From Sphingomonadales bacterium (GTDB taxonomy: Bacteria; Pseudomonadota; Alphaproteobacteria; SMXS01): 64,000 nt of DNA. Where the stretch lies: NCBI GenBank assembly GCA_022844405.1, contig JALHLV010000013.1, forward strand, positions 62,001 through 126,000. The letters are read 5' to 3'. Below are positions 4,813 through 24,175 of this stretch, in pieces (within the stretch, counting starts at the first letter, position 1; each line of letters begins with the position of its first letter). A program made the position numbers and the translations under genes. The notes below the pieces were generated by a model that saw nothing but the letters and a program-made list of their open reading frames with translations, searched no databases and was not told the DNA's origin.

Positions 4813-4826
4813 CAATGGAGATGTCC

Positions 4827-7510: not shown

Positions 7511-7538
7511 ATGGGCATTCTGGCGACGGTGTATAAAT

Positions 7539-7872: not shown

Positions 7873-8493
7873 TCAGCGGATCAACAAGCCCTCAAACAGA
7901 AACTGCCGGATGTATTTTCTCACGATGCGCTGAGTGTGTCCCAGGGCTTCCGCGCGCAGTGCCATCGCCATCTGCATGAATGTCAGCCATGAGATCAACT
8001 CTCGCATGTTGATATCCGTTCGAAGGACACTCGCTTCCATTGCCAGAGTGAGGATTGGTTTCCATCGGGTCTCATGCAGGATGATGATTTCGGCGGCGCG
8101 ATCCGCTTGCTGAGTGGCGTCTTGCGCCGATTGGTTTCGAAGAAGCAGGAGGGAAAGTTTGTTCTGCCGAAGCGCGTTGATGGACGCCATCATGGCTTCC
8201 GCTATTTTGTCCATGGGATCGGTAACTTTCGCGACACGCATTGCAACGAGCCGATTGATTTCTCGCGCCTTTTCAAGTCCCACCTCGTGGACGATATGCT
8301 CCTTGTTTGCGAAGTACCGATAAATGGTCGGTCGAGACAGCCCGCTTTCCTTCATGATGTCTTCGATCGAGGTCTTCTCAATACCATACCGCTCGAAGCA
8401 GTAAATCGACGCCTCCAGGATCGAAGCTTTGGTATTCGTCGTGGATCGGGTGCCGGTCGCGCCGCGGGGTTTGGCTTTGTGCGCTACCGGCAT
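7873..8493 (-). CDS. TetR family transcriptional regulator
   Basis: A 206-residue regulator. The N-terminal HTH is clear: [20 protein letters not shown], then [20 protein letters not shown]. The C-terminal ligand-binding part is variable. It is preceded by a basic, disordered leader ([15 protein letters not shown]). It is encoded alongside, and on the same strand as, acyl-CoA dehydrogenase and synthetase genes, so it most likely represses this cluster and responds to an acyl-CoA or acid intermediate. A palindromic candidate operator lies at 11374-11402 between the divergent synthetase and thiolase genes. Its stop codon is about 17 bp from the trpE-fragment junction. Confidence 0.92.
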
Positions 8494-8568
8494 CTAGGGA
8501 TCCTGAGTTCGTTCGGTATCGTGTTGGCTGTATCGGGCAGAGCCCGTCGCGCCGCTTCGCTCGCAAAT

Positions 8569-9723
8569 TTACAGAGACCGCGCGACAATGAGCTTCATGA
8601 TCTCGCTGGTCCCGCCATAAATGCGTTGAGCGCGGCAGTCTTTGAACATTTGGGCTATCGGAGTATCTGCCATGTAACCTAGCCCTCCAAAAAGTTGCAG
8701 ACAAGCGTCGATGGTCCGGAATTGTGCTTCCGTCGTCCAGTATTTGACTTTAGCGGCCTCGACCCCATCCAGACGGCCCTCGCAATGGCGGCGCACGCAT
8801 TCATCGACATAGGCGCGCCCTGCGGCGACATTCGCCGCGCACTCCGCGAGCACAAACTGCGTGTTCTGATAGTGATGCAGCGCCTTACCAAACGCCGTCC
8901 GCGATTTGGTATATGCGATCGTTTCGGTGATCGCGCGCTCCATCATGGCGACGGCCTGGATTGCGATGACCAGCCGCTCTTGTGGCAGCATGGCGGACAT
9001 TTGCTCAAATCCTTGGCTTGCAATTCCGCCCAGTACGTCTGCCTGCTCGACATACACGTCATCGAAGTACAGTTCCGAGGTGTCCTGCGCTTCCAGGCCG
9101 ATTTTTTTGAGATTGCGTCCCCGACTTACCCCTGGCGCCCCCGAACCGACCAGCAACAGCGAAATGTCTTCTCGACCGCCGACTTCGCCTGTTTTTGCAA
9201 CGACAAGAATGAGATCCGCAGACTGACCATTGCTAATGAAGGTCTTGGACCCATTCAGTAGATAGCCGGTGCCGGACTCTCTTGCGTGGGTTCGAATGCC
9301 TCGAAGGTCGGATCCCGTTTGAGGTTCGGTCATGGCAAGAGCTGTGATGATCTCACCGGAGCAGATTCCCGGCAGCCAGCGCCGCTTCTGTTCTTCTGTC
9401 CCGAAGTGAGTGAGATAGGGGGCGAAGACCGAATTCTGGAAGGTGATACTGAAACTTTCAGCGCCTCGCCAACTAACCTCCTCCATAAGTGCCACGTCAT
9501 ACCGAAAGTCACCGCCCGCCCCACCGTATTCTGAAGGAACAGATACTCCCAAAAGGCCCGCTGCCCCCGCCAGTCGCCAGGCGAAGCGGTCCACTAAACC
9601 GGCCTCGCGCCACTGGGCAAAGTGGTCCGCGCTCGCGTGCCGATCGAGAAACTTGCCGATCGAGTCACGAAAGAGCGTCAGCTCGGAATCCTCCGGACGT
9701 GATGGTCGGGTCAACGCGGGCAT
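8569..9723 (-). CDS. Acyl-CoA dehydrogenase
   Basis: A 384-residue FAD-dependent acyl-CoA dehydrogenase of normal length. Visible signatures are ITALAMTEPQTGSDLRGIRT (N-terminal/middle domain), YLLNGSKTFISNGQSADLIL, LGGLGYMADTPIAQMFKDCR and RIYGGTSEIMKLIVARSL near the C-terminus. The MCAD-type catalytic Glu position (YEGT) is Gly here (YGGT), as in many members that place the base on another helix. It should catalyse alpha,beta-dehydrogenation of an acyl-CoA in the membrane-proximal cytoplasm, passing electrons to ETF. Neighbours supply CoA activation and C-C cleavage; no hydratase or 3-hydroxyacyl-CoA dehydrogenase is in the cluster. Confidence 0.93.
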   Translation of the reverse strand: MPALTRPSRPEDSELTLFRDSIGKFLDRHASADHFAQWREAGLVDRFAWRLAGAAGLLGVSVPSEYGGAGGDFRYDVALMEEVSWRGAESFSITFQNSVFAPYLTHFGTEEQKRRWLPGICSGEIITALAMTEPQTGSDLRGIRTHARESGTGYLLNGSKTFISNGQSADLILVVAKTGEVGGREDISLLLVGSGAPGVSRGRNLKKIGLEAQDTSELYFDDVYVEQADVLGGIASQGFEQMSAMLPQERLVIAIQAVAMMERAITETIAYTKSRTAFGKALHHYQNTQFVLAECAANVAAGRAYVDECVRRHCEGRLDGVEAAKVKYWTTEAQFRTIDACLQLFGGLGYMADTPIAQMFKDCRAQRIYGGTSEIMKLIVARSL

Positions 9724-9796
9724 CTTGGCTTCCTTGCGGCATTCGCCCTTCTCGGGCCATCAACTGTCGCCTGTGCTTGCGCACGCAAAGGCTTCC

Positions 9797-11284
9797 CTAG
9801 GCAATCGCCCGAGCGACCCCTTCCCAATAGGGAGCCCTGAGTGCGCGCTTGAGCACTTTGCCGGTCGCGCTTAGGGGAAGTTGTTCGCGAAACTCAATGC
9901 TCTTTGGGCACTTGTAGGCGGCAAGACGCTCGCGGCAAAACGCGAGCAACGCCGCATCCGCGACTGGTTCTCGCACCACCAGAATGGCATGCACTTGCTC
10001 ACCCCACACTGCGCTGGGGACGCCGAGGACGGCTGCTTGGACGATGGCCGGGTGTTGTTCGAGAACGCGCTCCACCTCGACCGAGTAAACGTTCTCGCCT
10101 CCGGTGATGATCATGTCTTTTGCGCGATCGAGCAGGTATACGTAGCCTGCGTCGTCCAGCCGACCGATATCGCCGGTGCGAAACCAGCGGCTACTCTCAT
10201 CCATATGATCGCCCCAGTACCCAGCAGCCATCCAAGGTGCGCTAAACTCGATCTCCCCTTCGCCTTCGCCGACGTCCCGCCCAATTCTCAACCGAACGCC
10301 GGGAAGCGGCCGTCCAGCGGATCGAAGCAAGGATCCACCCAAGAGGTGATCCGCATCGGTCAATACGGTCAATGCACCACCCGATTCCGTCATGCCATAA
10401 GCCTGCACGATGCGCACATGAGGAAGAGCGCGGCGCAGGCGATCGAGCGTGTCCGGGCTTACAGGCGATCCCCCGTAGGAGACGTAGCGCAAACTCGTGA
10501 ATCCCGCGTCGTCCATCGCCGCCCCGCCGATTAGCGCTTCCAGCATGGACGGGACCAGCGCCACATGAGTCAACTGCTGCGAGCGAATGTCCTGGAGCAT
10601 GTTCTCAGCGCTGAAGCGAGGCTGAACGAATACTTCTGCGCCAGCGGCAGGCGCCGCGATGAGCCCGTTGAACCCGGAAACGTGAAACAACGGTGTCGCC
10701 TGATACAGGTGGGCGGGGCGCGACATGAGATCCCAGAGGCAGTTCAACGCCAGGGCCGAGTGCGCGAGCCCCGCCTGCGTCTGGCAGACGCCTCGCGCCG
10801 CTCCGGTTGTACCGTTGGTGTAAACCATGGCGGCGACTTCGCCCGATTTAGGCGACGGTAAGTCAACACCACCTTCGCTAGATTCTAGCTTCAAGGAGGA
10901 AAAGGCTCGGGCGGGGCAAGCATCAGTTGCGACTTGCTGTGCAAGCGTTGCAAATGCATCGTCATGGAGCAGGAGGCGTGGCCGTGCATCGGCAAGGATC
11001 GCAGCGATCTCGCCTGGCGACAGCCGCACATTGACCGGCACAATTGTAAACCAGCCGAGAAGAGCGGCATGCCAGACTGAAATGTACTCAATGGATGTTG
11101 CCATGAGTACAGCAACTCGAAGGTCGGTCTTGCCGCCGCACAACGTTTCAATGGTCCTTCCGAAGGCCTCGGCATCGGCCATGTGCTCTCCGTAACGCAC
11201 GACGCTGGTCGCGCTACGGTAGGCAATTTGCGACCTGTAGCGCTCCCCGGACGCACGCAGGATGTCGGCTATGATCAAGCTCAT
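9797..11284 (-). CDS. Acyl-CoA synthetase (AMP-forming)
   Basis: A 495-residue ANL-superfamily adenylating enzyme. The P-loop reads MVYTNGTTGAARGV, where the usual P-K before G is A-R. Further motifs are YGMTESGG (A5), FRTGDIGRLDDAGYVYLLDR (A7/A8), MIITGGENVYSVEVE and the C-terminal catalytic lysine in LSATGKVLKR. It should activate a carboxylic acid to acyl-CoA as the entry step of the island's catabolic route. The substrate cannot be read from sequence. The start ATG at 11284 faces a divergent promoter region shared with the thiolase-like gene. Confidence 0.92.
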   Translation of the reverse strand: MSLIIADILRASGERYRSQIAYRSATSVVRYGEHMADAEAFGRTIETLCGGKTDLRVAVLMATSIEYISVWHAALLGWFTIVPVNVRLSPGEIAAILADARPRLLLHDDAFATLAQQVATDACPARAFSSLKLESSEGGVDLPSPKSGEVAAMVYTNGTTGAARGVCQTQAGLAHSALALNCLWDLMSRPAHLYQATPLFHVSGFNGLIAAPAAGAEVFVQPRFSAENMLQDIRSQQLTHVALVPSMLEALIGGAAMDDAGFTSLRYVSYGGSPVSPDTLDRLRRALPHVRIVQAYGMTESGGALTVLTDADHLLGGSLLRSAGRPLPGVRLRIGRDVGEGEGEIEFSAPWMAAGYWGDHMDESSRWFRTGDIGRLDDAGYVYLLDRAKDMIITGGENVYSVEVERVLEQHPAIVQAAVLGVPSAVWGEQVHAILVVREPVADAALLAFCRERLAAYKCPKSIEFREQLPLSATGKVLKRALRAPYWEGVARAIA

Positions 11285-11373
11285 TGCTAAGGCCTCATGA
11301 CCGCGCCGACCGCCGCGTCCGGCAAAAATCTTCTGGTGCCGACTGCCATATTGTCCTCTCCGACTATGTTATG

Positions 11374-11402
11374 ATATTATGTTATTTGTAACATCATAAT
11401 AT
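11374..11402. promoter_or_regulatory. AT-rich inverted repeat, candidate TetR operator
   Basis: ATATTATGTTA (11374-11384) pairs with TAACATcATAATAT (11389-11402). The core ATGTTA-N4-TAACAT (11379-11394) is a perfect palindrome. It lies in the 156-bp gap between the divergent synthetase (leftward) and thiolase-like (rightward) genes, next to a cognate-looking TetR gene in the same island. Both size and position fit a TetR operator; binding is inferred. Confidence 0.55.
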
Positions 11403-11440
11403 TTCCCAATCGTCCTTGTCAACGAGGGAAGGAGTGCCGG

Positions 11441-12607
11441 GTGTCGGGTCTCACGGCGGTCATACAAGGGGTCGGAACGAGCGACCTGCCGCGCGCGCCT
11501 CAGCTAAGCGCCCTCGGTCACATGCTTCAGGCGAGTCACCGTGCATTGGCGGACGCCCGACTTTTGCCGGGCGATATCGATGGCTTCATGTGCGCTGGTA
11601 TTCAGGGGCAGCTGTTTGATGATGTCGTTACGGCAGCCGACTATGCCGGACTGCGGCCTGACCACCTGAACGGCACGATGACTGGCGGGTCTGCGTTCGA
11701 GTTCCACCTGCAAGACGCGGTCAGGCTCGTTGAGTCGGGGGCGGCCCGGCACGTTCTCATCGCTTACGGCAGCGACCTCGCGAGTAACAGGAGCATCAAG
11801 CTTTCCTTCGGCGCGGAGCGGGGTGGCCGGCCGGCCGGCCCGATGATGTGGGATAGTCTTTCAGGCCTCACGATAGTGGGAGGCTATGCTCTGGCGCTAC
11901 GCCGGCACATGTGGAAGTTCGGAACCACGCATGCGCAACTTGACGAAATCGCGCGTTCAGCGCGCCTGCACGCCGCGCGTACACCCGAAGGCGTTCTGAG
12001 AGAGCCGTTAACGGAAGATGCAATCGCGGAATCGCCAATGATTGCCGACCCCTTGCGAGCGATCGATTGTTGTCTTGTTTCGGATGGCGGGGCTGCAGTG
12101 GTGGTCAGCGCCATTGAGCGTATTGACCGGCCTACGCCCCCGCCAATCTATATTCTGGGCACCGGCTGTTGTCAGACTCACTGGAACATCGGCCAAAGCG
12201 ATGAGCCTGATGTGACGGGTGCTGGACGAGCGGCGCAGACCGCCATGCGTCAGGCGGAGCGCGTCTTGCAGGACATTGACATACTGCAGCTGTATGATTC
12301 GTTCACCATTACGCCCCTGCTGCTCTTCGAGGACATGGGCTTCTGCCCCAAAGGCGAGGCCGGACGCTTCGTCTCCGACGGCCGCCTTCGGCCCGGTGGC
12401 GCATTGCCGATGAACACCGACGGTGGCGGCCTCGCTACCTGCCATCCAGGCATGCGCGGCCCTTTTCTGGTCGTCGAAGCCGTTCGACAGCTGCGTGGCG
12501 ACGCAGGTCAGCGCCAGATCCCCAATGCAACGACATGTCTGGTCGCCGGCTCCGGAGGCATATTGTCGGCGATCGGCGTCGGCATCCTGTCGAAGGTGCC
12601 ACGGTAA
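11441..12607 (+). CDS. Thiolase-like (SCP-x/lipid-transfer, Ltp type) protein
   Basis: A 388-residue thiolase-superfamily protein. The start is GTG at 11441 with GAAGGAG about 8 bp upstream. Motifs include DIDGFMCAGI, TMTGGSAFEFHLQDAV, YDSFTITPLLLFEDMGFCPK, NTDGGGLATCHPGMRG and VAGSGGILSAIGVGIL. The segment where classical thiolases carry the nucleophilic Cys reads TGGSAFEF, with no Cys. In that respect it resembles Ltp-type proteins that act as aldolases with a DUF35 partner. The DUF35 gene follows with TAATG overlap. The likely role is C-C bond cleavage of an acyl-CoA intermediate, by thiolysis or retro-aldol cleavage. Confidence 0.85.
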   Translation: MSGLTAVIQGVGTSDLPRAPQLSALGHMLQASHRALADARLLPGDIDGFMCAGIQGQLFDDVVTAADYAGLRPDHLNGTMTGGSAFEFHLQDAVRLVESGAARHVLIAYGSDLASNRSIKLSFGAERGGRPAGPMMWDSLSGLTIVGGYALALRRHMWKFGTTHAQLDEIARSARLHAARTPEGVLREPLTEDAIAESPMIADPLRAIDCCLVSDGGAAVVVSAIERIDRPTPPPIYILGTGCCQTHWNIGQSDEPDVTGAGRAAQTAMRQAERVLQDIDILQLYDSFTITPLLLFEDMGFCPKGEAGRFVSDGRLRPGGALPMNTDGGGLATCHPGMRGPFLVVEAVRQLRGDAGQRQIPNATTCLVAGSGGILSAIGVGILSKVPR

Positions 12608-13038
12608 TGAACTCAACCGATTTGTCACGGCTTGCGTTTGCTGCGCCTGAACCGCAGCCGGAATGGAGTCCATTCTTTCGCGGTTGCGCTGAAGGTAGGC
12701 TGCTGATCGAGCGCTGCTCCGAGTGCGGCCACGCTCAGTTCTATCCGCGCGGACGTTGCATCCGCTGCATGGGAGGCGTCGCTTGGGCTGAAACGACAGG
12801 TCGGGGTCGGATTTTCAGCTTCACGATTGTGCGTGTGACACGGGACCCACGATTCAAACCCCTTCTTCCATACACGGTCGCTCTTATCGACCTTCCCGAA
12901 GGTGTGAGAATGACCGGTCTTGTGCTCCCCGACGATCTGAGCGTGACGATCGGTACCGAGGTGACCGCGGGTTTCGTCTCGTTTATCGACGATGCGCAGA
13001 GCGCCTTCCCCATCTGGCGGGTGTCCGGATTCCGGTGA
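12607..13038 (+). CDS. Zn-ribbon/OB-fold DUF35 protein
   Basis: A 143-residue protein with the DUF35 architecture. An N-terminal helix (PQPEWSPFFRGCAEGRLLIE) is followed by a rubredoxin-like zinc ribbon with four cysteines (CSECGHAQFYPRGRCIRC), then an OB fold (GRGRIFSFTIVRV...). The ATG overlaps the thiolase stop (TAATG at 12605-12609), so the two are coupled. DUF35 proteins bind thiolase-like partners and channel acyl-CoA substrates, for example the ChsH2 DUF35 domain with Ltp2 in steroid side-chain degradation. The gene ends 28 bp before the trpE stop, at the right edge of the island. Confidence 0.88.
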   Translation: MNSTDLSRLAFAAPEPQPEWSPFFRGCAEGRLLIERCSECGHAQFYPRGRCIRCMGGVAWAETTGRGRIFSFTIVRVTRDPRFKPLLPYTVALIDLPEGVRMTGLVLPDDLSVTIGTEVTAGFVSFIDDAQSAFPIWRVSGFR

Positions 13039-13066: not shown

Positions 13067-14587
13067 CTACTGCCCCCGGCCCGGCGCCGCCGCGAACCTC
13101 ACCGCTTCCTGCGCCGCGCGGACCAGCGCGCGGGCCTTGGCGCGGCATTCGGCGTCCTCGCTTTCGGGGATGCTGTCGGCGACGATGCCGGCGCCGGCCT
13201 GGATGTACATGACGCCGTCCTTGACCAGCCCGGTGCGCAGCACGATGGCGGTGTCCATGGACCCGCCGGCCGAGAAATAGCCGACGCCGCCGGCATAGAT
13301 GCCGCGCTTTTCCACCTCCAGCTCGTCGATGATCTCCATCGCCCGCACCTTGGGCGCACCCGAGACGGTGCCGGCCGGGAAGCCGCCGCACAGCGCGTCG
13401 ATGCCGTCATGTTTGGGGTCGATCTCGCCGCGCACGTTGGAGACGATGTGCATGACGTGGGAATAGAGCTCGATGGTGTTCCGCTCGGTCACCTCGACGG
13501 TGCCGGGCCTGGCGACGCGGCCGACGTCGTTGCGGCCCAGATCGAGCAGCATCAGGTGCTCGGACAGCTCCTTGGGGTCGGCCAGCAGGCCGTCCATCAG
13601 CTCCCTGTCCTCGGCGGCGGTGGCGCCGCGCGGCCTTGTGCCGGCGATGGGGCGGATGGTGACCTCGCCGTCCTTGAGCCGCACCAGGATCTCGGGACTG
13701 GAGCCGGTCACCGCGAAGCCGTCCATGTCCATGTAGTACATGTAGGGCGACGGGTTGGTGCGCCTGAGCGCCCGGTAGAGCGCGAAGGGCGGCAGGTCGA
13801 ACGGCACGGAAAAACGCTGCGACAGCACCACCTGGAAGATGTCGCCGGCGGCGATGTACTCCTGCGCCTTGCGGACCATGTCGAGATAGCGCTCGCGCGG
13901 CGTGTTGGAGACCGGCTCGGGCAGGGCAGGGACCTCGATGCCGGCGCTGTGCGCGGCGGGCACCGGCGCGTCGAGCGCGTCGATGCCCAGCCACAGCCGG
14001 TCCAGCGCGCGGCTGTAGGCGGCCTCGGCGGTCACGCCGGGTCGCGGGCGCACCGGCGTCACCAGGATCACCAGGTCCTTGACGCTGTCGAACACCGCCA
14101 TCAGCGTCGGCCGCACGAACAGGCCGTCGGGCGTGCCGATGGGATCGGGGTTGGGCGGGGGCAGCTTTTCCATCAGCCGCACCATGTCGTAGCCCATGTA
14201 GCCGACGAGGCCGGCGGCCATGGGCGGCAGCGCCTCGGGCAGGTCGATCAGCGATTCAGCGATCAGCGCGCGCATGGACTGCAGCGGGTGGCCCGCCTCG
14301 GGCTTGAACGCGGCGGTGTCGTCGAGGGCGTGGCGGTTGATCTCGGCCTTCTCGCCAACGCAGCGCCAGATCACGTCGGGCAGCAGGCCGATGATCGAAT
14401 AGCGGCCGCGGATGGCGCCGCCTTCCACCGATTCCAGCAGGAAGGTGTGGCTACGGCCGTGGGTCAGCTTCAGGAAGGCCGAGACCGGCGTTTCAAGATC
14501 GGCGACCAGCGTGGTCCAGACGACCTGCGGCCTGCCGGCCTGATAGGCGGCGCGGAAGGCGTCCGGCTCGGGCGAGAAGTCGGTCAT
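13067..14587 (-). CDS. trpE: Anthranilate synthase component I
   Basis: A 506-residue chorismate-utilising enzyme that makes anthranilate from chorismate with TrpG-derived ammonia. The N-terminal half carries the feedback region (FLLESVEGGAIRGRYSIIG). The C-terminal chorismate-binding domain shows RFSVPFDLPPFALYRALRRT, SSPEILVRL, RPIAGTRPRGAT, LVDLGRNDVGRV-like MLLDLGRNDVGRV and [15 protein letters not shown]. The full length is intact. Its last 316 bp are duplicated at 7541-7856. It no longer adjoins trpG; an accessory block follows its stop codon. ppiD lies 43 bp upstream on the same strand. Confidence 0.97.
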   Translation of the reverse strand: MTDFSPEPDAFRAAYQAGRPQVVWTTLVADLETPVSAFLKLTHGRSHTFLLESVEGGAIRGRYSIIGLLPDVIWRCVGEKAEINRHALDDTAAFKPEAGHPLQSMRALIAESLIDLPEALPPMAAGLVGYMGYDMVRLMEKLPPPNPDPIGTPDGLFVRPTLMAVFDSVKDLVILVTPVRPRPGVTAEAAYSRALDRLWLGIDALDAPVPAAHSAGIEVPALPEPVSNTPRERYLDMVRKAQEYIAAGDIFQVVLSQRFSVPFDLPPFALYRALRRTNPSPYMYYMDMDGFAVTGSSPEILVRLKDGEVTIRPIAGTRPRGATAAEDRELMDGLLADPKELSEHLMLLDLGRNDVGRVARPGTVEVTERNTIELYSHVMHIVSNVRGEIDPKHDGIDALCGGFPAGTVSGAPKVRAMEIIDELEVEKRGIYAGGVGYFSAGGSMDTAIVLRTGLVKDGVMYIQAGAGIVADSIPESEDAECRAKARALVRAAQEAVRFAAAPGRGQ

Positions 14588-14630: not shown

Positions 14631-16535
14631 TCACGGCATCTGCGAGATGATCTGGTCGACGAGCTTCTGGTTCCGGCTGACGGAATGTTTGTCGAACAGA
14701 TAGGTCTGGTACTGCGCGAAGACGTCGAGCTTCAGGCTTTCGCCGAGGGAGTCCCTGATCTGCTTGTAGTCGTCGCTGTTCTGGTCGATGGGCATGGCCT
14801 TCACCTCGGCCACCTGGACGACGAAATAGCCGTCGGCGCGCGCGGAGGGGCCGAACACGACGCCGTCCTTGCGGGCGTCGAACATGGCGATCAGCAGCTC
14901 GCGGGAGAAGGCGCCGGCCAGTTTCCCGGCTTCGGCGCGGCTGACGATCGGGGTCGAGGACACCGTGGCGCCGATCTCCAGGGCGGCGTCAGACAGCGAG
15001 GCGCCGGCGCGCACCTTCTCCACCATCTTCTGCGCGACCGAACGGGCCGCGGTGCTGCGCGCATCGCGCGTCCAGTCGGCGCGGACCTGATCCTTGATCT
15101 GGTCGAGCGGCCGGACGCGGGCGGGGAGGATCTTGTCGAGCTGGGTGATGAAATAGCCGTTCTCGCCGTCATCCTCCAGGTCGATGAACTCGCCCTCGGT
15201 CTTGGCGAACAGGGATTCGGCGAAGGCCTTGCCTGGCGGCAGCCCGGTCACCGACATGCCCAGATCGTCCAGGCCCTCGCGGCTCATCGTCTTGACGGTG
15301 CGCAGCGGCAGGTCGAGCGACCTGGCGACCGCCTCGATGGGCGCGCCGGTCGCGACCTGGGCGCGCGCCTTGGCGGCGAGGTCGTCGAGGGCGGCGGCGA
15401 CCTGCCTGTCGACGATGTCCTTCATGAGCTGCGGGCGGGCTTCCTCCAGCGAGACCTCGCGGCCCGCCGTGACGGCATCGACCTTGAAGATCACCCAGCC
15501 CAGCTTGCTGGCCACCGGATCGCCGACGGCGCCCCTGGCCAGCGAGAAGGCCTTGTTCGCGGCCTCGTCGCCCAGATAGGACAATGTCGACTTCTCGGCG
15601 GCGGGCAGCGCGGTCTCGGCCGCGGACATGCCCGCCGACTTGGCGACGGCGGCGAAGTCCTCGCCGGCGTCGAGCCGCTGCTTCAGCGTCTTCGCCGCGG
15701 CCTCGGTGGGCACGGTGATCTGCTTCAGGTCGCGCTTTTCCGGGGTCGACAGCGCCGCCTTGCGCGCTTCGTACTCGGTCTTCAGCGCCGCTTCGGTCAC
15801 CTGGGTGCGCGCCGCCAGCTCGGCCTGGTTCAGCACGATGAACCGGAACGCGCGGTATTCGGGCTGGGAGTAGGCCTGCTTGTGGGAATCGTAATAGGCC
15901 TTGATGTCCTTGTCGCCCGGTTCGGGGACATTGGTCATGGCGGCGGCGGGGATGCCCACATAATGCGCCCAGCGCACTTCCGAGCCATAGGAGTACAGCG
16001 CCTGGACCACCGCCTCCGGCACGATGACGCCGCTGCGCAGGGTGCCGAGCAGGTCGGCGCGCTCCATCAGGCGGCGGATTTCCTGCTCGTACATGGCCTC
16101 GGTCATGTCGCGCTGGCGCAGGCCTTCCCGGTAGATCGCCCGGTCGAACGTCCCGCCGGGGTCGTGGAACTGCGGCGCTTCGTGGATGGCCGTGGCGATG
16201 CGCTTGTCGGACGCGCGCACGCCCAGGCCGTCGGCCGCGTTGTCGAGCGCCGCGCCCATCACCAGCCGCTCCAGCGTCAGCTTGTCAATGCCGTCGGCCA
16301 CGGCCTGCGCCGCGCTATAGGGCTGCGACGGATCCCTGGTGCGCTGCATCTGCTCGGCCCGGAACGCGCGCTGGAATTCGGCCTGGGTCACGTGCACGCT
16401 GTCGACGTTCGCCACGGTCGCCGGACCCGCGAGATGCGCCGACTGAACGCCGAAAAGCACGAAGCTGGCGATGATCAGGATCAGCAGGCCCCGCAGGAGC
16501 CAGGAATTCACGCCTTTGCGCAGCGCAGTCAGCAT
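14631..16535 (-). CDS. ppiD: Periplasmic folding chaperone/peptidyl-prolyl isomerase, PpiD type
   Basis: A 634-residue SurA/PpiD-type protein. ATG at 16535 gives [16 protein letters not shown] and a single N-terminal membrane anchor ([16 protein letters not shown]), then a SurA_N-like helical domain and a parvulin-like rotamase domain (about residues 240-360, including [40 protein letters not shown] and [13 protein letters not shown]). It is expected at the periplasmic face of the inner membrane, assisting folding of secreted and outer-membrane proteins. It is divergent from tpiA and just upstream of trpE, an arrangement found in other alphaproteobacteria. Confidence 0.93.
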
Positions 16536-16696
16536 CGACGGTGTTCTCCCCAAGGGGCGGAGGCCCGGCGGTTCGGGCTGGATTGGGCGCGCATCATAGT
16601 CACGCCGGCCACCCCTCGCAACCGGCAAGCCGGGACTGGAAACCGGTCCGCCGGTCTGCTATCGGGAAATCCGGTCAGCAACGTCAGGAACAGCCG

Positions 16697-17455
16697 ATGA
16701 GCGACGCACCCAAGCCGCTGGTGGCGGGCAACTGGAAGATGAACGGAACGGTCGCCGGCGCGGGCGAGGCGCGGCGCATGGCCGACGGGCTGGCGGCGAC
16801 GGGCGGCCTGCGCTGCGACGCCATGATCTGCCCGCCATTCCCGCTGATCGGCCTGTTCGCCCGGGTGCTGTCGGGCACCGCGCTCGCGGTGGGCGCGCAG
16901 GACTGCCATCCCGAGGCAGGCGGCGCGCATACCGGCGACGTCAGCGCCGAACTGCTCGCCGAGGTGGGCGCGTCGGCGGTCATCGTCGGCCACTCCGAGC
17001 GCCGGCAGGACCACGGCGAAACCGACGCGCTGGTGGCCGCCAAGGCCCAGGCGGCGTGGCGCGCCGTCCTGACCGCCATCATCTGCGTCGGCGAGACCGA
17101 GGCCGAGCGCGCCGCCGGCCGCACCCTCGACGTCATCGGCCGCCAGATCGCCGGTTCGGTGCCGGCCGCCGCGCGGCCCGACACCACGGTCGTCGCCTAC
17201 GAGCCGGTCTGGGCCATCGGCACCGGCCGGACGCCGACGCCAGGGGATGTCGCCGAGGTGCACGCCTTCATCCGCGAGACGCTCGCCCGGCAACTGGGCG
17301 AGGCGGGCAGGGGCATCCGCCTGCTCTATGGCGGCTCGGTCAAGCCATCCAACGCCGCCGAGCTGATGGCGGTCGCCAATGTGGACGGCGCGCTGGTCGG
17401 CGGCGCGAGCTTGAAGGCGGACGATTTTCTGGGGATTATGGCAGCGTACCGATAA
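16697..17455 (+). CDS. tpiA: Triosephosphate isomerase
   Basis: A 252-residue TIM-barrel enzyme interconverting dihydroxyacetone phosphate and glyceraldehyde 3-phosphate. Catalytic residues are visible: Lys in VAGNWKMNG, His in VGHSERR and Glu in [14 protein letters not shown]; the phosphate loop is [10 protein letters not shown]. The ATG at 16697 has AGGAACAG upstream and fits the family start better than the longer upstream reading. Relatives place secG directly downstream; here secG is 6.4 kb away with accessory genes between. A 58-bp stretch of the 3' end (17384-17441) recurs at 21595-21652. Confidence 0.97.
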
Positions 17456-17552
17456 AGCAAGCCGGCGCCACCAGTTGTCCGGCATGGGTGATTGATTTCG
17501 CTTGGTTTTTCCACGCCCAGGACGGCGTAGGTGCGCCTGCGTCCTCCGGCGG

Positions 17553-18257
17553 CTAGCCTGACAACCCATCGCTCCGGGAAGCGCCTTCGACGCGGCCGTC
17601 CCGCAAGGTGATGCGGCGCGTGCAGCGGGCGGCAACCTGTTCGTCGTGCGTGCAGATCAGAAACGTCGCCTTGTCCTCCCGGTTGACCTGGCGCATCAGA
17701 TCGAGGACCTGCTCGGCGGCGACGCGATCAAGGCTTCCCGTCGGTTCATCGGCCAGCACGAGTTCCGGGTTGTTCATCAGTGCACGCGCGATCGCGACGC
17801 GCTGCTTCTGGCCACCGGAAAGGCGCGTGGCGGGAAAGTCCATGCGGTCCGCCAGGCCCACGCGCGCGAGCAGGTCCCGCGCGCGGCTGCGCATCGCGGG
17901 CGAAATGCCGCCCGCCGGCGCCGCTGCCGGGAAAGCCACGTTCTCCGTCGCGGTGAAGTCGGGCAGAAGGTGGTGAAACTGGAAAATGAAACCCAGACGC
18001 CTGTTGCGAAACAGCGCGCGCTCCACCTCCGACAGGCCTTCGATGGGTTGGCCAGCGATCGTGATCGTGCCCGTTGTCGGCCGAAGCAGCAGGCCGACAA
18101 TCGATAGCAGCGTCGACTTGCCCGAACCCGAAGCGCCCAGAAGAGCCGCCAATTCTCCGGGCTCCAGCATGAGATCCACACCCTTCAGCACGTCGGTCGG
18201 TTCGTCGCCGTTGCGAAACGTCATGCCGATCCCGCGCGCATCGAGGACGGCGCTCAT
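17553..18257 (-). CDS. ABC transporter ATP-binding protein (LolD/MacB-like)
   Basis: A 234-residue ATPase with Walker A GASGSGKST, signature LSGGQKQRVAIARAL and Walker B LVLADEPTGSLD, followed by an H-loop (ICTHDEQVAARC). These fit the LolD/MacB/FtsE group that powers mechanotransmission-type exporters rather than solute importers. Its ATG (18255-18257) overlaps the permease TGA (ATGA). It is the last gene of a three-gene leftward operon: adaptor, permease, ATPase. It is probably an efflux or envelope-export system; the substrate cannot be inferred. Confidence 0.92.
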   Translation of the reverse strand: MSAVLDARGIGMTFRNGDEPTDVLKGVDLMLEPGELAALLGASGSGKSTLLSIVGLLLRPTTGTITIAGQPIEGLSEVERALFRNRRLGFIFQFHHLLPDFTATENVAFPAAAPAGGISPAMRSRARDLLARVGLADRMDFPATRLSGGQKQRVAIARALMNNPELVLADEPTGSLDRVAAEQVLDLMRQVNREDKATFLICTHDEQVAARCTRRITLRDGRVEGASRSDGLSG

Positions 18258-19459
18258 TGCTGGATCGCCTCCAGCGGGTCGAGCCGCGCGGCCGATCGGG
18301 CGGGAATGACCGACGCCAAGACGGCGCCGAGCGTCGTCAGCACAATGACGGCGATATAGCCGCCTTCGCTTGGCGCGATCGGCAGCACCATGCTTCCGTC
18401 CGGCTTGGTCAACGTCGCCAACCACGAGCAAAGGGCAAAGCCGGCGGCGCAGCCGATTCCGGCGCCGACCATGCCGATGAGCAGGCCCTGCAGAACGAAG
18501 ACACTGGCGATGAACCTCTTCGATACGCCGAACGCGCGCATGATGCCGATTTCCCCGCGGTGCCGGTTGGCCGAAAGGCTCAAGGCGCTGGAGATGCCGA
18601 TGAGGACGGATATCAGCGAGAATGTCTGGATGAGCGTGCCGGTCTGCGCCTGAGCGGCGAGCCCGTTTTCCAGGTTTGCATTGCTTTCCTGCCAGGATGT
18701 GGCGCGCAGTCCGGTCGCCTCGTGCAGGAAGGCGGCGACCTCCCGCGCGCGATGGGGATCGACCAGCTTGACCTCGATATTCGTCACGCCTTCGGGCAGA
18801 CGGAAGAGCGGACGAGCGGTTTGGAGGGAGAGATAGGCCACTCGCTCATCTAGGCTCTGCAATCCGGTCTCGAATATGCCGCGCACGGTCAGCAGCCGAT
18901 CGATACCGCGATCGGTGCGAAACAGCACGGGCTGACCGGCTGACAGACCGAGATTCTCCGCCAACCTGACGCCGATCAGAATGCCGTCGGCGCCAAGGCC
19001 GGCATCGCCGCGGACGATTTCCGTGCTGATCGGCGAGATGGCGTCGAGCCCCGACGGGTCGATCGCCGTCACCGCGACCGGCGCAACCGCTTCCCCCTTC
19101 ACCAGAAACGCGCTGCCGGAAATCTGCGGGCTGATGGCCGAGACCGAAGCCTGGCTGCGCAACAGCGCAACCGTGGAAGCCCAGGCGCGGATCTGCCGGC
19201 GCTGAAAGGTCGAGACGAGGGCGACGGATGCCACGTCGGCGTCGGGGCTGGGCAGAACCCGCGCGACGCGGGTCAGGGGTTCGAGTGACACATGCGCGCT
19301 GTTGGCGGTGACATCGTCGGTCAGGCGTATGGCCAGTCCCTGGATCAGCGCGGTGATGAAGACGAATGCGGTTACGCCGAGCGCCACGCCCGCGATGAGG
19401 AGCGCCGTCTGGGCGGGGTTTGAAAGAAGATAGCGGCGAGCGACGGCGAAGGCGAACAC
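18254..19459 (-). CDS. ABC transporter permease (FtsX/MacB-like)
   Basis: A 401-residue permease. The start is taken as GTG at 19457-19459 (VFAFAVARRYLLSNPAQTAL), 4 bp after the adaptor stop. Longer in-frame readings run into the adaptor gene. The topology is one N-terminal membrane segment (LLIAGVALGVTAFVFITALI), a large periplasmic domain, then three C-terminal segments (SLISVLIGISSALSLSA; VFVLQGLLIGMVGAGIGCAA; AVIVLTTLGAVLASVIPA). The FtsX motif is near the C-terminus (PARSAARLDPLEAI). It pairs with the downstream ATPase and the upstream HlyD-type adaptor. Confidence 0.88.
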   Translation of the reverse strand: MFAFAVARRYLLSNPAQTALLIAGVALGVTAFVFITALIQGLAIRLTDDVTANSAHVSLEPLTRVARVLPSPDADVASVALVSTFQRRQIRAWASTVALLRSQASVSAISPQISGSAFLVKGEAVAPVAVTAIDPSGLDAISPISTEIVRGDAGLGADGILIGVRLAENLGLSAGQPVLFRTDRGIDRLLTVRGIFETGLQSLDERVAYLSLQTARPLFRLPEGVTNIEVKLVDPHRAREVAAFLHEATGLRATSWQESNANLENGLAAQAQTGTLIQTFSLISVLIGISSALSLSANRHRGEIGIMRAFGVSKRFIASVFVLQGLLIGMVGAGIGCAAGFALCSWLATLTKPDGSMVLPIAPSEGGYIAVIVLTTLGAVLASVIPARSAARLDPLEAIQQ

Positions 19460-19463
19460 TGGC

Positions 19464-20648
19464 CTAGCGCTCCGGCGTCGGTGCGCGCTGCACGCGCGCG
19501 CGCACTCTGGTGGACGGCCCGGTCTCCGCGGGCGCCAGCACGACCCGGTCGCCGGCCGCAAGGCCGCTTTCGATGATCGCGTCAAGAGACGGCCAATCGG
19601 CGATCTCAATGGATCGTGTCCGCACGACGCCGCCTTGATCGACGACATACACCTTGGGCGCCGTCGTGGCGTCGACCACGGCTTGTCGCGGCACGACGAT
19701 CCCGGCCTCGTGCCGGGCGACGATGATCGTCACATCCACGGATCGCCCCGGCGGAATGCTCATCCTCTGGACCGGAGCGAGCTTGATCAGGCGTCCGCCG
19801 GTAGTGGGGTCGACGCGCGGAGAGACTTCGGTGATGCGCGCCGCAAAGGTGTCGTCCGACCCCGAAAGAGCGGCGCGCGCCGACATGCCCGGACGCAGCG
19901 CGTCGGCGTAGGATTCATCCACGTCCGCCTGCAGTTCCACGCCATCGCGCGAGCCGAGCTGAAACAAAAGTGTCTCTGGCGAAATCACCTGGCCATTGTC
20001 TATCGGGCGTACCAGCACGACACCCGCCATCGGCGCCCGGATCGTGAACTCTCCGGTCAGTGCTGCGGCGGCGCGGCGGTCGGCAGAGGCGGCGGCGAGG
20101 CCCGCTTCGGCGGATTGCAGGGCGGCACGCGCCTCATCGAGAGCGGCGGTCGAGGCAACCCCGCGTTCCGCCAGAGTGCGTGTCCGGTTGAACGCCAGCC
20201 CCGCGCGTCGCGCTTCAGCGCGCGCCGCCGTCACTCGAGCGCTGCCCGCCTCTGTTTGGGCCTGTTCCACCATGGATCGGACGATCGCCAACGGCGCGTC
20301 CAGTGCGACGACATCACCGTCGTCGTGCAACAGCCGCACGATCTGCCCCGCATTCGGGGAGCGGACATCGACCAGATTTTCAGGTCGAACCCGCCCGACC
20401 ACCGAGAGCGCAACCTCGACGCTTCCGGGTTCGATCCTCAGAACAGCCACGTCGGGCGGTCGCATGAACCACCAACCGAGCGCGGCGAGAAGGATGGCGC
20501 CGAGCAAGGCTCCTGCGACAACGAAATGCCGTCGCTTGCCATCCGCGGGCAAAAGACCAGCGCGGCGCCCCAACCGGTCGGCGAGCGCGCGCACGGGACT
20601 TTTAGGTGGCGGCGACGTTTCTTCAGGAGCGTTGGGTGTGTCGTCCAT
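19464..20648 (-). CDS. HlyD/RND-type periplasmic adaptor
   Basis: A 394-residue membrane-fusion protein. A proline-rich cytoplasmic leader precedes one membrane anchor (FVVAGALLGAILLAALGWWF, about residues 42-61). The lipoyl/barrel-sandwich halves are visible as VDVRSPNAGQIVRLLHDDGD and FTIRAPMAGVVLVRPIDNGQ, separated by an Ala-rich coiled-coil hairpin. It should link the ABC permease to an outer-membrane channel; no TolC-like gene is nearby. It is the first gene of the adaptor-permease-ATPase operon located in the insert between tpiA and secG. Confidence 0.9.
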   Translation of the reverse strand: MDDTPNAPEETSPPPKSPVRALADRLGRRAGLLPADGKRRHFVVAGALLGAILLAALGWWFMRPPDVAVLRIEPGSVEVALSVVGRVRPENLVDVRSPNAGQIVRLLHDDGDVVALDAPLAIVRSMVEQAQTEAGSARVTAARAEARRAGLAFNRTRTLAERGVASTAALDEARAALQSAEAGLAAASADRRAAAALTGEFTIRAPMAGVVLVRPIDNGQVISPETLLFQLGSRDGVELQADVDESYADALRPGMSARAALSGSDDTFAARITEVSPRVDPTTGGRLIKLAPVQRMSIPPGRSVDVTIIVARHEAGIVVPRQAVVDATTAPKVYVVDQGGVVRTRSIEIADWPSLDAIIESGLAAGDRVVLAPAETGPSTRVRARVQRAPTPER

Positions 20649-20901
20649 CCGCCGTACAGCCTAGGCGCCGGCAAACGGAACCAGGATCAGCGCCGGCGAA
20701 CTGGCTCCCGCGAGCACGACACGTCTCACCACAATCCGATGTTTTATCCGTGCGGGTCCCATCCGGAGCCACGGGCAGGCGCACCCGTCGATGCCGAAGG
20801 CCATCACGACGACCACCCGTTCGAGCGCGGTTTGGCCCACGGGCGTTTCCCGCTCCGCCAGCCCTGCCGCGGCAGGGCGCGGCGGCCTTGTGGCGGCCCC
20901 C

Positions 20902-21525
20902 TCAACGGGACTTCTCGATCGGAATCCAGACTTCGTTGCGCCGCATGAACCAGGGTGTCCATGGCGGATTGTAGCGCGCGAGCGACGGCGCGCCCGCGGC
21001 GCGAAGCTGCCGGCGTTCCACGAACGCCCTCAGGGTCGCTGTCTTGCGTTCAACGTCGGCGGCTCGCGCCAATCCGGAAAACCGCACCACGGCATGACGC
21101 TGTGGTGGGACGGCGGCGAGACGGACGCGCGTATCATTCGGCACCGGCAGCGTCTCGAGCGTGTATGTGCCGGGCATCGTGAAGCGAACAACCCAGGCCG
21201 TGTCCCCGCCGGATTGCATGACCGGCGCGGTCATGGCAATGGTTTCGCCGGTTGCGCGCTGTTGCACGACGGGCGCCGTCATCGCGATGCTCTGACGGCG
21301 CGTGTTGCCGCCGAAAATGTAGGCCGCGAGCAACCGGAAGCCCGCGTTCGCCGCTTCATCGCGACTGCCGCCGACACTGACTTCGGCCACGACGAGGGCA
21401 GGATAATCGCGTAGTTCGAGGTCGCCCTCGCGCAGCACCACGGTGAATGCTGGTTCCTCGGTCGCCATGGCCACGCCCCCAAACAAGAACAACGCGCACA
21501 CCAGGCTCAGCAATGCGTTTTTCAT
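20902..21525 (-). CDS. SOUL family heme-binding protein
   Basis: A 207-residue protein with a signal peptide (MKNALLSLVCALFLFGGVAM, cleavage near ATE). The SOUL/HBP fold shows in EPAFTVVLREGDLELRDYPA, AAYIFGGNTRRQSIAMTAPV and FTMPGTYTLETLPVPNDTRV. Relatives bind heme or tetrapyrroles; export to the periplasm is predicted here. ATG at 21525 is preferred because it opens the signal peptide. It is on the same strand as the exporter operon but separated by 253 bp in which I see no convincing gene; that gap holds an 18-bp perfect palindrome at 20861-20878. It lies next to the tpiA tail fragment. Confidence 0.9.
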   Translation of the reverse strand: MKNALLSLVCALFLFGGVAMATEEPAFTVVLREGDLELRDYPALVVAEVSVGGSRDEAANAGFRLLAAYIFGGNTRRQSIAMTAPVVQQRATGETIAMTAPVMQSGGDTAWVVRFTMPGTYTLETLPVPNDTRVRLAAVPPQRHAVVRFSGLARAADVERKTATLRAFVERRQLRAAGAPSLARYNPPWTPWFMRRNEVWIPIEKSR

Positions 21526-21594
21526 CGCAAGCCAACGCGCGCCGCCTTCGATTGGTTCCATGCCGCCGCACAACGCGAGGCGAAATTGGTTTCC

Positions 21595-21652
21595 GACGGT
21601 GCCCTGGCGGACAGCGCGAGCTTGAAGGCGAGCGACTTTATGGGGATCATGG
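21595..21652 (+). pseudogene. Second copy of the tpiA 3' end (remnant)
   Basis: Read on the plus strand, this encodes DGALADSASLKASDFMGIM, against [19 protein letters not shown] at the TpiA C-terminus. Nucleotides 21595-21652 match 17384-17441 without gaps at 47 of 58 positions, including a 17-bp exact run (20 to 36 in the alignment). Weaker similarity extends upstream. There is no stop where tpiA stops; the frame continues into unrelated sequence. It is interpreted as a displaced or duplicated 3' end that marks the far side of the insert behind tpiA. Confidence 0.7.
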
Positions 21653-21715: not shown

Positions 21716-23716
21716 GTGAGAAAAGTCATCTCCCTGGGCTTGTTGCTGGCCGGCGCCTGCGTCGGCCTGCCCGCCGCCGCTCACGACCCGCTCCCGGTGA
21801 ACTACTTCGCCCGGCTGCCGGCCATCGGCGGACCGAACGAATGGACGACTGTCGTGCTGTCGCCAAGCGGCGCCCATTTCGCGGCCATCATCGACGTCAA
21901 TGGCCAGCCGGCGCTGGCATCTGTCCCTACCGATGGCTCCAAGGACATCAAGTTCACCTTTTATGGCGAGTTCACACCTCTCGAGATCGAATGGGCGACT
22001 GACCGCTACCTGCTTATTCACTGCGCCTTTGCGACCAAACGTGGCGGCGTGGCGACCACGGAGACCAGGCTGGCGGTTTTCGACATCGAAACCGGCAAGC
22101 TGGACAATCTCATCGGCTATGACGATGCGCATGAACTGTCGGCGCCCCTGAATGTCTCGCAAATCCAGAACAGCGTCGTCAGCCGGCTTCCCGTGGCCGG
22201 TGACGACGTGCTCGTGGAACTCGACCGCGAGGAATGGGGCAGCAGAAGCGTCTTCAGTTTTTCGCTGGCCGGCGGTTCGACGGGAAAGCGCGTCCTAAAG
22301 TTCCGCAACGGCATACAGGGATGGCTTCAGGATTCCAGGGGCGTCATCCGGCTTGGCTATGGCTTCAAACGCCAGCAGTCGAACAAGATTCTGCCCGAAC
22401 TGCGGCTGATCTTTCGAACGTCCGCGGATGACGACTTCTCGACCCTCGCTCGATTCGATCCGCGTGATCTGGAGGGCGACGGCTTCGAGGTCGTTGGTTT
22501 CACCGAAGATCCGAAGGTCATCGTCATCAGGGACCTCAACGAGCAGGGGCGGCTCGCGCTGTATAGCTTCGACACGTCCACGTCGCAGGTCGTCGAGACG
22601 TTGTTCTCGGATCGGAAATACGATGTGGGAGGCGTGCAATACGCACCCGGTACGGATCGCCTTGTCTCGGCCTCCTATATCGCCGACGTACGCAGGAAAG
22701 TGTTTTTCGACGATGGCGAACGCAAGGACCACGAGACGCTGGCGCGGCTTTATCCAGGGCTGATCAGCGGCATCGTCAGCCGCGACCAGTCGGGAGCCAA
22801 GGTGATCGCCCGCGCGTCGAGCGAAGCGTCACCGCCAGCGTACTACTACTTCGACATCGGCAAGAACGTCTATCAGCCGCTGGGCAGCGCCTATCCCGAG
22901 CTTGCCGGCCGGGTGCTGACGCATACCAGCGTCATCTCCTACGAGGCCCGCGACGGTACCCGCATTGATGGCTACCTGACCGTTCCCCAAGGCGCCGAGT
23001 CCAGGAACCTGCCGATGATCGTCTATCCGCATGGCGGGCCGGCGGCGCGCGACTATCTGCGCTACGACTACTGGGTCCAGTATTTCGCCAGCCGCGGCTG
23101 GGCGGTGCTGCAGATGAATTTCCGAGGGTCCGACGGCTATGGGCGGACGTTCGAGAAGCTGGGCGAGCACCAGTGGGGCAAGGCCATGCAGGACGACATC
23201 ACAGACGGCGTCAGATGGGCGATTGCCGGGGGTGTTGCCGATCCGTCGCGCATCTGCATCGTCGGCGGCAGCTTCGGCGGGTATGCCGCGCTTCAGGGTG
23301 CCGTCGCCACGCCCGAACTATAGAGGTGCGCGGTGTCGCTCAACGGCGTGTCGGACATGGACAAACTGATTTCCGACAAGCGTTTCTACAGCAGCTACCT
23401 GCTGCTGAAGGAGTATTGGGCGCAGGGCGACCCGAAGGAGGTTTCGCCGGTCTACCACGCGAACAAAGCCGTCGCGCCCATCCTGATCGCCTACGGTACC
23501 AAGGACCGGATCGTCGAATACGACCAGAGCACCGACATGATCTCGGCGCTGAGGCGGGCGGGCAAGACCGTGGTCGACGTCAAGCTCGAGGGCGGCGACC
23601 ACCATCTGACACTGGCTGCCAACCGGATTGAATTCTTCGAAGCGATGGACAAATTCCTGACCGAGAACCTCGGCCTCGGTCCGGTTCCCGATCCGACGCC
23701 CGCCGCGGTGAAATAA
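21716..23716 (+). pseudogene. S9 family peptidase (prolyl oligopeptidase type) with in-frame amber stop
   Basis: A 666-codon frame with a signal peptide (MRKVISLGLLLAGACVGLPA), a beta-propeller-like N-terminal domain and a C-terminal alpha/beta hydrolase domain. Ser519 (GGSFGGY) lies before a TAG at codon 536 (23321-23323); Asp597 (GTKD) and His629 (GGDHH) lie after it. Both sides share one frame. The text ...ATPEL-stop-RCAVSLNGVSD fits the family, where Tyr is usual at that position, so a single TAC-to-TAG change is likely. A GGAGG lies about 10 bp before the GTG start. It is probably inactive unless the stop is suppressed. Confidence 0.88.
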
Positions 23717-23824: not shown

Positions 23825-24175
23825 ATGCAAGAAGTCGTACTCATCATCCTGTTGGCGGTCGCCCTCGCGTTGGTGGCGGTGATCCTGTTGCAGAAGTCCG
23901 AAGGCGGCGCGGCTACCCTCACGGGCGGCTCGTCCTCGGGCAGCTTCATGTCGGTGCGCGGCACGACCAACCTGCTGACCCGGGCGACGGCGATCCTGGC
24001 CACCGTCTTCATGGGGCTGTGCCTGGTGCTGGCGGTGCTGGCCGCGCGCGGCGGCGACAATACCGGTTCGGTCATGGACAAGGCCAAGGTGCCGGCCGCT
24101 CCCGCGGGTTCGGGCCCGGCGGCGCCCGCCGCGCCGGCCAAGCCCGCGGCGCCGAGCGTGCCGTACCAGGAGTAG
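23825..24175 (+). CDS. secG: Preprotein translocase subunit SecG
   Basis: A 116-residue inner-membrane subunit of the SecYEG channel. There are two membrane segments ([19 protein letters not shown], about 4-22; [20 protein letters not shown], about 55-74) with the conserved loop [18 protein letters not shown] between them, then an Ala/Pro-rich tail. The order secG-pyrG-eno is conserved with other alphaproteobacteria, where tpiA normally precedes it. Here tpiA has been pushed 6.4 kb upstream by an accessory block. Confidence 0.95.

What the first reader, a model, noticed from the sequence alone, without database searches (positions are those of the whole stretch)
17384..21652. Second case: the tpiA 3' tail recurs behind an accessory block
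The final coding part of tpiA (17384-17441) reappears at 21595-21652 (47/58 identical, ungapped). The exporter operon and SOUL gene lie between, and secG, the normal tpiA neighbour, is displaced. This parallels the trpE case 3 kb away on the other side of ppiD. Two 3'-tail duplications next to accessory DNA in one 25-kb stretch suggest a shared insertion mode that uses ends of housekeeping genes.
Basis: partly seen in the sequence, partly recalled or inferred. Interest (0 to 1): 0.72.

Follow-up and report, generated by a model that had tools for sequence, protein, structure and literature searches.

The report
Core-gene tails stranded by gene insertions
In this alphaproteobacterium and some close relatives, blocks of extra genes have been inserted right behind core genes, leaving the old end of the gene stranded on the far side of the block, probably because incoming DNA recombined with the gene at one end and was joined without homology at the other.

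Summary
tpiA's last coding bases (17384-17441) recur at 21595-21652 at 47/58, far above chance (E 6.9e-9 genome-wide). Between them lies one operon, SOUL-MFP-permease-ATPase. In most relatives an S9 peptidase, not secG, follows tpiA; the stranded tail lies 63 bases before it. G006 and G007 also carry tpiA tail stubs, behind different inserts; G001 has the same insert and a decayed stub. None was seen at 78 other tpiA loci. In 876 kb of this genome (23%) I found three tail-stub insertions: trpE, tpiA and a nitronate monooxygenase gene, NMO.

No integrase or transposase was recognised among the genes scanned in the five blocks. Stubs share alleles with congeners where the intact tail differs, suggesting that the intact 3' end came in with the insert; support is moderate. 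Best reading: homology-anchored insertion with one illegitimate joint. That mechanism is known, and displaced 3' ends of this kind have been proposed at toxin loci. New here are scars at core genes and a hotspot around trpE-ppiD-tpiA. A dedicated insertion system is neither shown nor excluded.

The parts
16697..17455 (+). tpiA, intact
   Evidence: open frame; matches in 38 of 41 genomes searched, own genome included; the 150-nt window at nt 600-750 is 97.3% identical to G003 against 85.3-90.7% in the four windows before
17384..17441 (+). intact copy of the duplicated tpiA tail
17456..21594 (.). inserted block between tpiA and its stranded tail
   Evidence: exporter genes and SOUL absent from the tpiA locus of G002, G003, G005, G006, G007 and G008, present in G001
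17553..18257 (-). ABC transporter ATPase (PF00005)
18254..19462 (-). MacB/FtsX-type permease (PF12704, PF02687)
19464..20648 (-). HlyD-type membrane fusion protein (PF16576, PF13437)
20902..21525 (-). SOUL haem-binding protein (PF04832), first gene of the inserted operon
   Evidence: same gene order in G003 at another locus
21595..21652 (+). stranded tpiA 3' tail (stub), 47/58 identical to the intact tail
21716..23716 (+). S9 peptidase, the usual neighbour of tpiA in this family; broken by an in-frame TAG at 23321-23323
23825..24175 (+). secG
14631..16538 (-). ppiD, between the two affected genes
13067..14587 (-). trpE, intact
13069..13368 (-). intact copy of the duplicated trpE tail
7873..13038 (.). 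inserted block behind trpE: OB-fold (ChsH2-type) protein, thiolase-like, AMP-binding ligase, acyl-CoA dehydrogenase, TetR; 56-62% GC against 68-71% in 13-17 kb
   Evidence: at E 1e-60 the thiolase-like protein matches only 3 of 20 other genomes, at 37-40% identity, none of them in the genus
7541..7840 (-). stranded trpE 3' tail (stub), 96% identical; protein match runs on to 7856
1991..7540 (.). second block between the trpE stub and its usual neighbour: RhuM, IS1595-type transposase, trypsin-like gene; no second trpE stub detected in 1991-2560 or 4595-5602
977..1990 (+). divergent polysaccharide deacetylase, usual convergent neighbour of trpE (its match ends within about 30 nt of the trpE match in G002, G003 and G005)

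Best explanation
Each case is the scar of an insertion by one-sided homology (homology-facilitated illegitimate recombination). Incoming DNA from a related cell carried the 3' part of a core gene plus the donor's downstream genes. It recombined homologously inside the recipient's gene, so the gene stayed whole but took the donor's 3' tip. The far end was joined without homology upstream of the recipient's own stop codon, leaving the recipient's original 3' tail as a decaying stub behind the new genes. Shown: the duplicated tails, the NMO stub at the native place, recurrence in relatives, no recombinase recognised among the block genes scanned, allele differences between stub and intact tail. 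Inferred: that the intact tip is the incoming copy, the form of the donor DNA, and the order of steps.
For: Anatomy (gene - block - 3' tail) in trpE and tpiA, in NMO of the same genome (75 nt of tail plus 49 nt behind the stop, 77%; a terminator-like hairpin lies behind the stub) and in tpiA of G006 and G007. The NMO stub is at the native place: DNA behind it matches DNA behind NMO in G001, G003 and G004, and the insert ORF is absent from 1.5 kb behind NMO in the 6 congeners compared and from the 20 other genomes searched. Where stub and intact tail differ, the stub agrees with at least one of six congeners at 8 of 14 (trpE), 4 of 11 (tpiA) and 9 of 17 (NMO) sites; the other 6, 7 and 8 are private to the stub. 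Changes of similarity along the intact genes: tpiA vs G003 break at nt 606, 12.0% to 2.0% differences, 8 of 500 permutations as strong; NMO vs G001 break at nt 800, 4.3% to 11.4%, 5 of 500, and vs G004 at nt 920, 5.2% to 16.4%, 13 of 500; in trpE 4 of 15 matches private to G005 lie in the last 31 of 1518 nt. In G007 the stub is fused on its left to a 45-nt copy (87%) of the S9 3' end, a joint that homologous pairing alone would not make. No integrase or transposase among the block genes scanned.
Against: No donor genome with a block behind the gene but without a stub was found. The trpE break tests put their strongest breaks at nt 292-663, not at the 3' tip, and G004 has no trpE sequence for the last 120 nt, which favours G005-only sites there. 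tpiA becomes more like G005 too (18.5% to 8.1% at nt 593, 15 of 500), so part of the rise may be conservation. Not significant: tpiA vs G001 353 of 500, tpiA vs G004 126, NMO vs G005 439, NMO vs G003 118. These tests are post hoc and uncorrected. In trpE the middle 230 nt of stub and intact copy differ at one site only, which needs later gene conversion or low parental divergence. At tpiA of G000 it is not settled which copy is native: the spacer behind the intact gene resembles G003's by eye, and the S9 gene is of another type than in G001 and G003. Two of the three tpiA stubs start close together (see rivals). Two block ORFs have no Pfam match, so an unknown recombinase is not excluded.
Confidence: 0.52

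Rival explanations
1. Insertion with long target duplication, or a tandem duplication followed by replacement of one unit: both tails come from the same genome and differ now only by decay and later exchange.
For: Long, variable target duplications are proposed for restriction-modification insertions (PMC3031569, passages). In G007 the joint 'S9 end | tpiA tail' is what a tandem duplication from the tpiA tail to the S9 end would leave, and the two G007 tails are 98% identical in protein.
Against: Stubs share alleles with congeners at many sites where the intact tail does not. No significant copy of nearby DNA was found to the left of the trpE, NMO or G000 tpiA stubs; left of the G006 stub there is only a 26-nt match (E 0.001), not followed up.
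Confidence: 0.18
2. Campbell-type single crossover of a circular DNA carrying a 3' gene fragment and the accessory genes.
For: Gives a whole chimeric gene, the insert, and a 5'-truncated tail in the order observed (reasoning from established recombination).
Against: No plasmid or replication gene among the block genes scanned.
Confidence: 0.15
3. Site-specific integration of elements that attach in gene 3' ends and carry a replacement end, with the integrase since lost or acting in trans.
For: Same gross anatomy. All five cases are at 3' ends; the 5'-end cases flagged in the scan looked like paralogues or overlapping calls, though I was looking for tails. By DNA match the tpiA stubs of G000 and G006 start only about 11 nt apart (tpiA nt 688 and 677), and by protein match near codons 220 and 217.
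Against: No integrase among the genes scanned in the five blocks; the TetR protein also matches a resolvase helix-turn-helix model (HTH_7) over its DNA-binding part, read here as TetR. The G007 stub starts about 70 nt earlier (nt 611) and is fused to S9 sequence. No tRNA in the fetched pieces with the G001, G006 and G007 tpiA loci; the window's only tRNA is at 62760.
Confidence: 0.09
4. Chance similarity or a paralogous domain.
For: The tpiA match in G000 is short and imperfect.
Against: E 6.9e-9 genome-wide, right frame and position, stubs in G006 and G007 and a decayed one in G001.
Confidence: 0.01

Closest known systems
Homology-facilitated illegitimate recombination proposed for displaced genes and 3' ends at Vibrio cholerae T6SS loci (PMC5361080, passages read; it says the same was hypothesised for Rhs loci)
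   Same: One homologous anchor, one illegitimate joint; new genes inserted, old 3' region shifted downstream and kept.
   Different: There the displaced parts belong to effector/immunity genes under special selection; here they are ends of tpiA, trpE and a nitronate monooxygenase gene, and the inserts are unrelated to one another.
Insertion with long target duplication (Nobusato et al. 2000, known here only from text and reference list of PMC3031569)
   Same: Insert flanked by long direct repeats of variable length.
   Different: Described for restriction-modification genes, with both repeats from the target; here stub and intact tail carry different alleles.
Minimal mobile elements of Neisseria (definition read in passages of PMC3082526)
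   Same: Different gene cassettes between two conserved genes, incorporated by homologous recombination.
   Different: Tail stubs are not part of the definition quoted there.
Small variable segments of bacterial genomes (PMC2884548, passages read)
   Same: Small segments between conserved DNA; 10-18% are flanked by repeats; illegitimate recombination is discussed.
   Different: Stubs of gene 3' ends were not among the passages I saw.
Prophages and islands integrated in gene 3' ends (recalled, no call)
   Same: Gene restored by a carried 3' end, old tail on the far side.
   Different: An integrase and a fixed attachment core would be expected; no integrase was recognised and the core is undecided.

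Membership tests
Homology-facilitated illegitimate recombination scar | homologous anchor on one side of the insert | tested here: inconclusive
   Changes of similarity near the intact 3' tip in tpiA and NMO; in trpE only a cluster of sites, with breaks placed elsewhere
Homology-facilitated illegitimate recombination scar | illegitimate joint on the other side | tested here: met
   Block end followed directly by a truncated tail; in G007 S9 end fused to tpiA tail
Homology-facilitated illegitimate recombination scar | donor DNA taken up and inserted in one step | not testable with these tools
   needs a transfer experiment
Insertion with long target duplication | both repeats derived from the target sequence | tested here: inconclusive
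   stub and intact tail carry different alleles, but later exchange could produce this
Integrase-mediated island | recombinase gene in the element | tested here: not met
   Pfam scan of 13 block genes: none recognised, two ORFs without a match
Integrase-mediated island | constant attachment core | tested here: inconclusive
   tpiA stubs start at about nt 688, 677 and 611 in G000, G006 and G007; two are close, and ends of decayed matches do not fix the joints
Minimal mobile element | different cassettes between the same two conserved genes | tested here: met
   tpiA-S9 interval: SOUL/ABC operon (G000, G001), one ORF (G006), MBL-like gene + TylF-type gene (G007), no insert (G002, G003, G008)
Minimal mobile element | exchange by homologous recombination in both flanks | not tested
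   -

The most novel reading that the evidence does not exclude
A lineage-specific insertion system, with an unknown recombination function acting in trans, that places gene cassettes at 3' ends of core genes and restores the gene with a carried end, most active around the trpE-ppiD-tpiA block of this alphaproteobacterial family.
Probability: 0.07. Interest if true: 0.8.

Novelty: new variant of a known kind. Interest (0 to 1): 0.45.

Why it matters
How operons without mobility genes enter chromosomes is usually guessed. Tail stubs are directional footprints that decay with time: they show which gene served as anchor, roughly where the joint fell, and that the core gene itself may have become chimeric. 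Counting them across genomes would measure one-sided insertion in nature, and the tpiA locus of this family offers a place to study it.

Tried and rejected
Chance: rejected. Other apparent tail copies in the genome sample: C1 38764-38872/51150-51258 and C2 97439/107771 are intergenic palindromic repeats misread as genes; C6 39705/48317 (43 nt) and C1 49328/55193 (46 nt) lie inside other genes and were not followed. Weaker protein hits, for example behind C1 163584-165437 of G000 and several in the control genome G037, were set aside by eye as low-complexity noise. A second trpE stub next to the deacetylase: not found (1991-2560: score 25, 87 of 200 shuffles reach it; with the G003 tail 26, 59 of 200; 4595-5602: 35, 8 of 200, and 32, 31 of 200). 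Gene transfer agent: the one marker searched, GTA_TIM, is absent; ComEC is present but also in E. coli, so uninformative. Head (5') duplications: the cases flagged look by eye like paralogues or overlapping calls. The gene caller was home-made, and the G000 tpiA case itself was not flagged in its second version, so counts are lower bounds.

On rechecking I corrected the NMO site count (9 of 17, not 10) and the stub starts: two of the three tpiA stubs begin close together. For that reason I lowered the best explanation slightly and raised the site-specific rival and the novel case.
Full report
Observation. The last coding part of tpiA, 17384-17441, recurs at 21595-21652 with 47 of 58 bases identical and no gap. 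In the whole 3.78 Mb genome the second copy has E 6.9e-9; the next place, which is neither tpiA nor the stub, has 5.2e-4. Control places in this and 11 other genomes, upstream, downstream and on the other strand, score 26-34 of 58 apart from true second tails. The trpE case is 300 nt at 96%.

What lies between. The block behind tpiA is one operon read from right to left: SOUL haem-binding protein, HlyD-type fusion protein, MacB/FtsX-type permease, ABC ATPase. G003 has the same four genes in the same order at another place in its genome (SOUL 80%, MFP 74%, permease 85%, ATPase 84%; found through), so the block is a unit that occurs at different loci. The block behind trpE holds an OB-fold protein, a thiolase-like protein, an AMP-binding ligase, an acyl-CoA dehydrogenase and a TetR regulator and has 56-62% GC against 68-71% in the trpE-ppiD-tpiA stretch. 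The tpiA block differs less (65-69%).

Usual order. In G001, G002, G003, G006, G007 and G008 an S9 peptidase lies between tpiA and secG; G005 lacks it, G009 keeps a fragment, and the G004 contig ends inside tpiA. In G003 the tpiA match ends at 6908 and the S9 match begins at 6974. In the window the stub ends at 21652 and the S9 frame begins at 21716. The stub therefore sits where tpiA's own end is expected. The operon is also at this place in G001, where a more decayed tail is detectable before S9: alignment score 46 with the G003 tail (at most 34 in 500 shuffles), 42 with the G000 tail (0 of 500 reach it), 34 with the G000 stub (1 of 500), 32 with G001's own tail (4 of 500), 30 with the G005 tail (7 of 500).

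Recurrence. G006 (same genus) has a 103-nt tpiA tail copy, 88%, behind a 0.8-kb insert with one ORF without a Pfam match; G007 (same family) has a 146-nt copy, 92%, behind 2.4 kb with an MBL-like gene (below the Pfam cut-off) and a TylF-type methyltransferase. I take the G000/G001, G006 and G007 events as separate, because the inserts differ and each stub is most like tails of its own lineage (G006 stub 88% to its own tpiA; G000 stub 81-83% to G000 and G001, but 73% to the G006 stub). Against full separateness, the G000 and G006 stubs start close together and both precede the same type of S9 gene. Of 92 tpiA loci examined, 6 were dropped for less than 1 kb downstream; of the 86 left, 8 are from this family and 78 are others (75 from genome contigs, whose family I did not check, and 3 fetched genomes). 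The only same-strand downstream copies with E below 1e-5 were those of G006 and G007; the window was not in that set, and the G001 stub was not detected there. Of 144 genomes across the class, 141 with tpiA, none gave a second C-terminal piece beside tpiA at E 0.001; one (G086) has a weak partial match on another contig and one (G041) two long copies. That search misses stubs as short as the one in G000.

Genome scan. I examined 876 kb of G000: 76 kb around the window and 800 kb elsewhere. Real tail copies: trpE, tpiA and a nitronate monooxygenase gene (NMO) at G000:C1 120984-121961, whose tail with the stop recurs at 122614-122737 behind a 160-aa ORF without a Pfam match. In 200 kb each of G002, G005 and G037, about 215 kb of G003 and 19 kb of G001 none was flagged; G007 (200 kb) and G006 (88 kb) gave only their tpiA cases. 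Outside the tpiA/trpE region this is one case in 800 kb of G000, so two at genes whose 3' ends lie 4.4 kb apart is unusual. The scan is a lower bound because gene calling was crude.

Which copy is native. For NMO, DNA behind the stub matches DNA that follows NMO in G001, G003 and G004, and the insert ORF is missing within 1.5 kb behind NMO in the six congeners compared: the stub is the native end. For trpE the usual neighbour, a polysaccharide deacetylase, directly follows trpE in G002, G003 and G005, but in the window a second block (RhuM, IS1595-type transposase, trypsin-like gene) lies between it and the stub. For tpiA in G000 the question is open: the S9 gene here is closer to G006's first S9 copy (69%) than to those of G001 and G003 (59%), and by eye the spacer behind the intact gene resembles G003's.

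Ancestry of the tails. At sites where stub and intact tail differ, the stub agrees with at least one of six congeners at 8 of 14 (trpE), 4 of 11 (tpiA) and 9 of 17 (NMO) sites; the rest (6, 7, 8) are private to the stub. The intact tpiA is 97.3% identical to G003 in the window at nt 600-750 but 85.3-90.7% before; a break at nt 606 is reached by 8 of 500 permutations, but the same region is also more like G005 (15 of 500), so conservation may contribute. NMO becomes less like G001 after nt 800 (5 of 500) and less like G004 after nt 920 (13 of 500); against G003 and G005 nothing significant (118 and 439 of 500). In trpE four of 15 G005-only matches fall in the last 31 of 1518 nt (my rough binomial by hand, about 2e-4, post hoc, and G004 has no sequence there), while the break tests placed breaks at nt 292-663. 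These results fit an imported 3' tip, with moderate support and no correction for multiple tests.

Joint. In G007 the stub is preceded by a 45-nt copy (87%) of the S9 gene's 3' end, fused directly to the tpiA tail. This is an illegitimate joint, and it suggests that the inserted DNA came from, or passed through, a tpiA-S9 locus. It can also be read as a relic of a tandem duplication.

Reading. The best single account is one-sided homologous insertion. No recombinase was recognised among the 13 block genes scanned. The tpiA stubs start at about nt 688, 677 and 611, so a fixed site is neither shown nor cleanly excluded. The 3' bias is expected, since replacing a 3' end spares promoter and start (inference). 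The mechanism type is known and has been proposed for displaced gene ends at T6SS loci. My paper searches listed nothing recognisable as a description of such stubs in housekeeping genes, but I read passages of only four papers, in a limited open library and with few terms.

Noticed in passing
window 23321-23323: The S9 peptidase next to the stub has an in-frame TAG in its catalytic part; the matched stretches of its homologues in G001, G002, G003, G006 (two copies), G007 and G008 hold no stop.
   Followed up: partly
L120 (G006), oriented 9488-13454: Two tandem S9 peptidases, 61% identical; the window's S9 resembles the first (69%), those of G001 and G003 the second slightly more (63-64% vs 59-60%), suggesting differential loss.
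   Followed up: partly
window 1991-7540: A second accessory block at the trpE-deacetylase junction: RhuM-family gene, IS1595-type transposase, trypsin-like protein, 53-61% GC, no trpE stub of its own detected.
   Followed up: partly
L121 (G007) about 11418-11462: 45-nt copy of the S9 3' end fused to the tpiA stub.
   Followed up: yes
L243 (G003:C24) 8259-12109: SOUL-MFP-permease-ATPase as a four-gene operon at a different locus.
   Followed up: partly
G000:C1 38764-38872 and 51150-51258; C2 97439 and 107771: Intergenic palindromic repeats that imitate gene-tail duplications in automatic scans.
   Followed up: partly
L121 (G007) 2555-4612: About 2 kb between the deacetylase and trpE in G007, a further insertion at that junction, without a detected trpE stub.
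   Followed up: no
L120 (G006), oriented 9220-9245 and 3507-3532: 26-nt match (85%, E 0.001) between the insert's end left of the G006 stub and a place 5.7 kb upstream.
   Followed up: no
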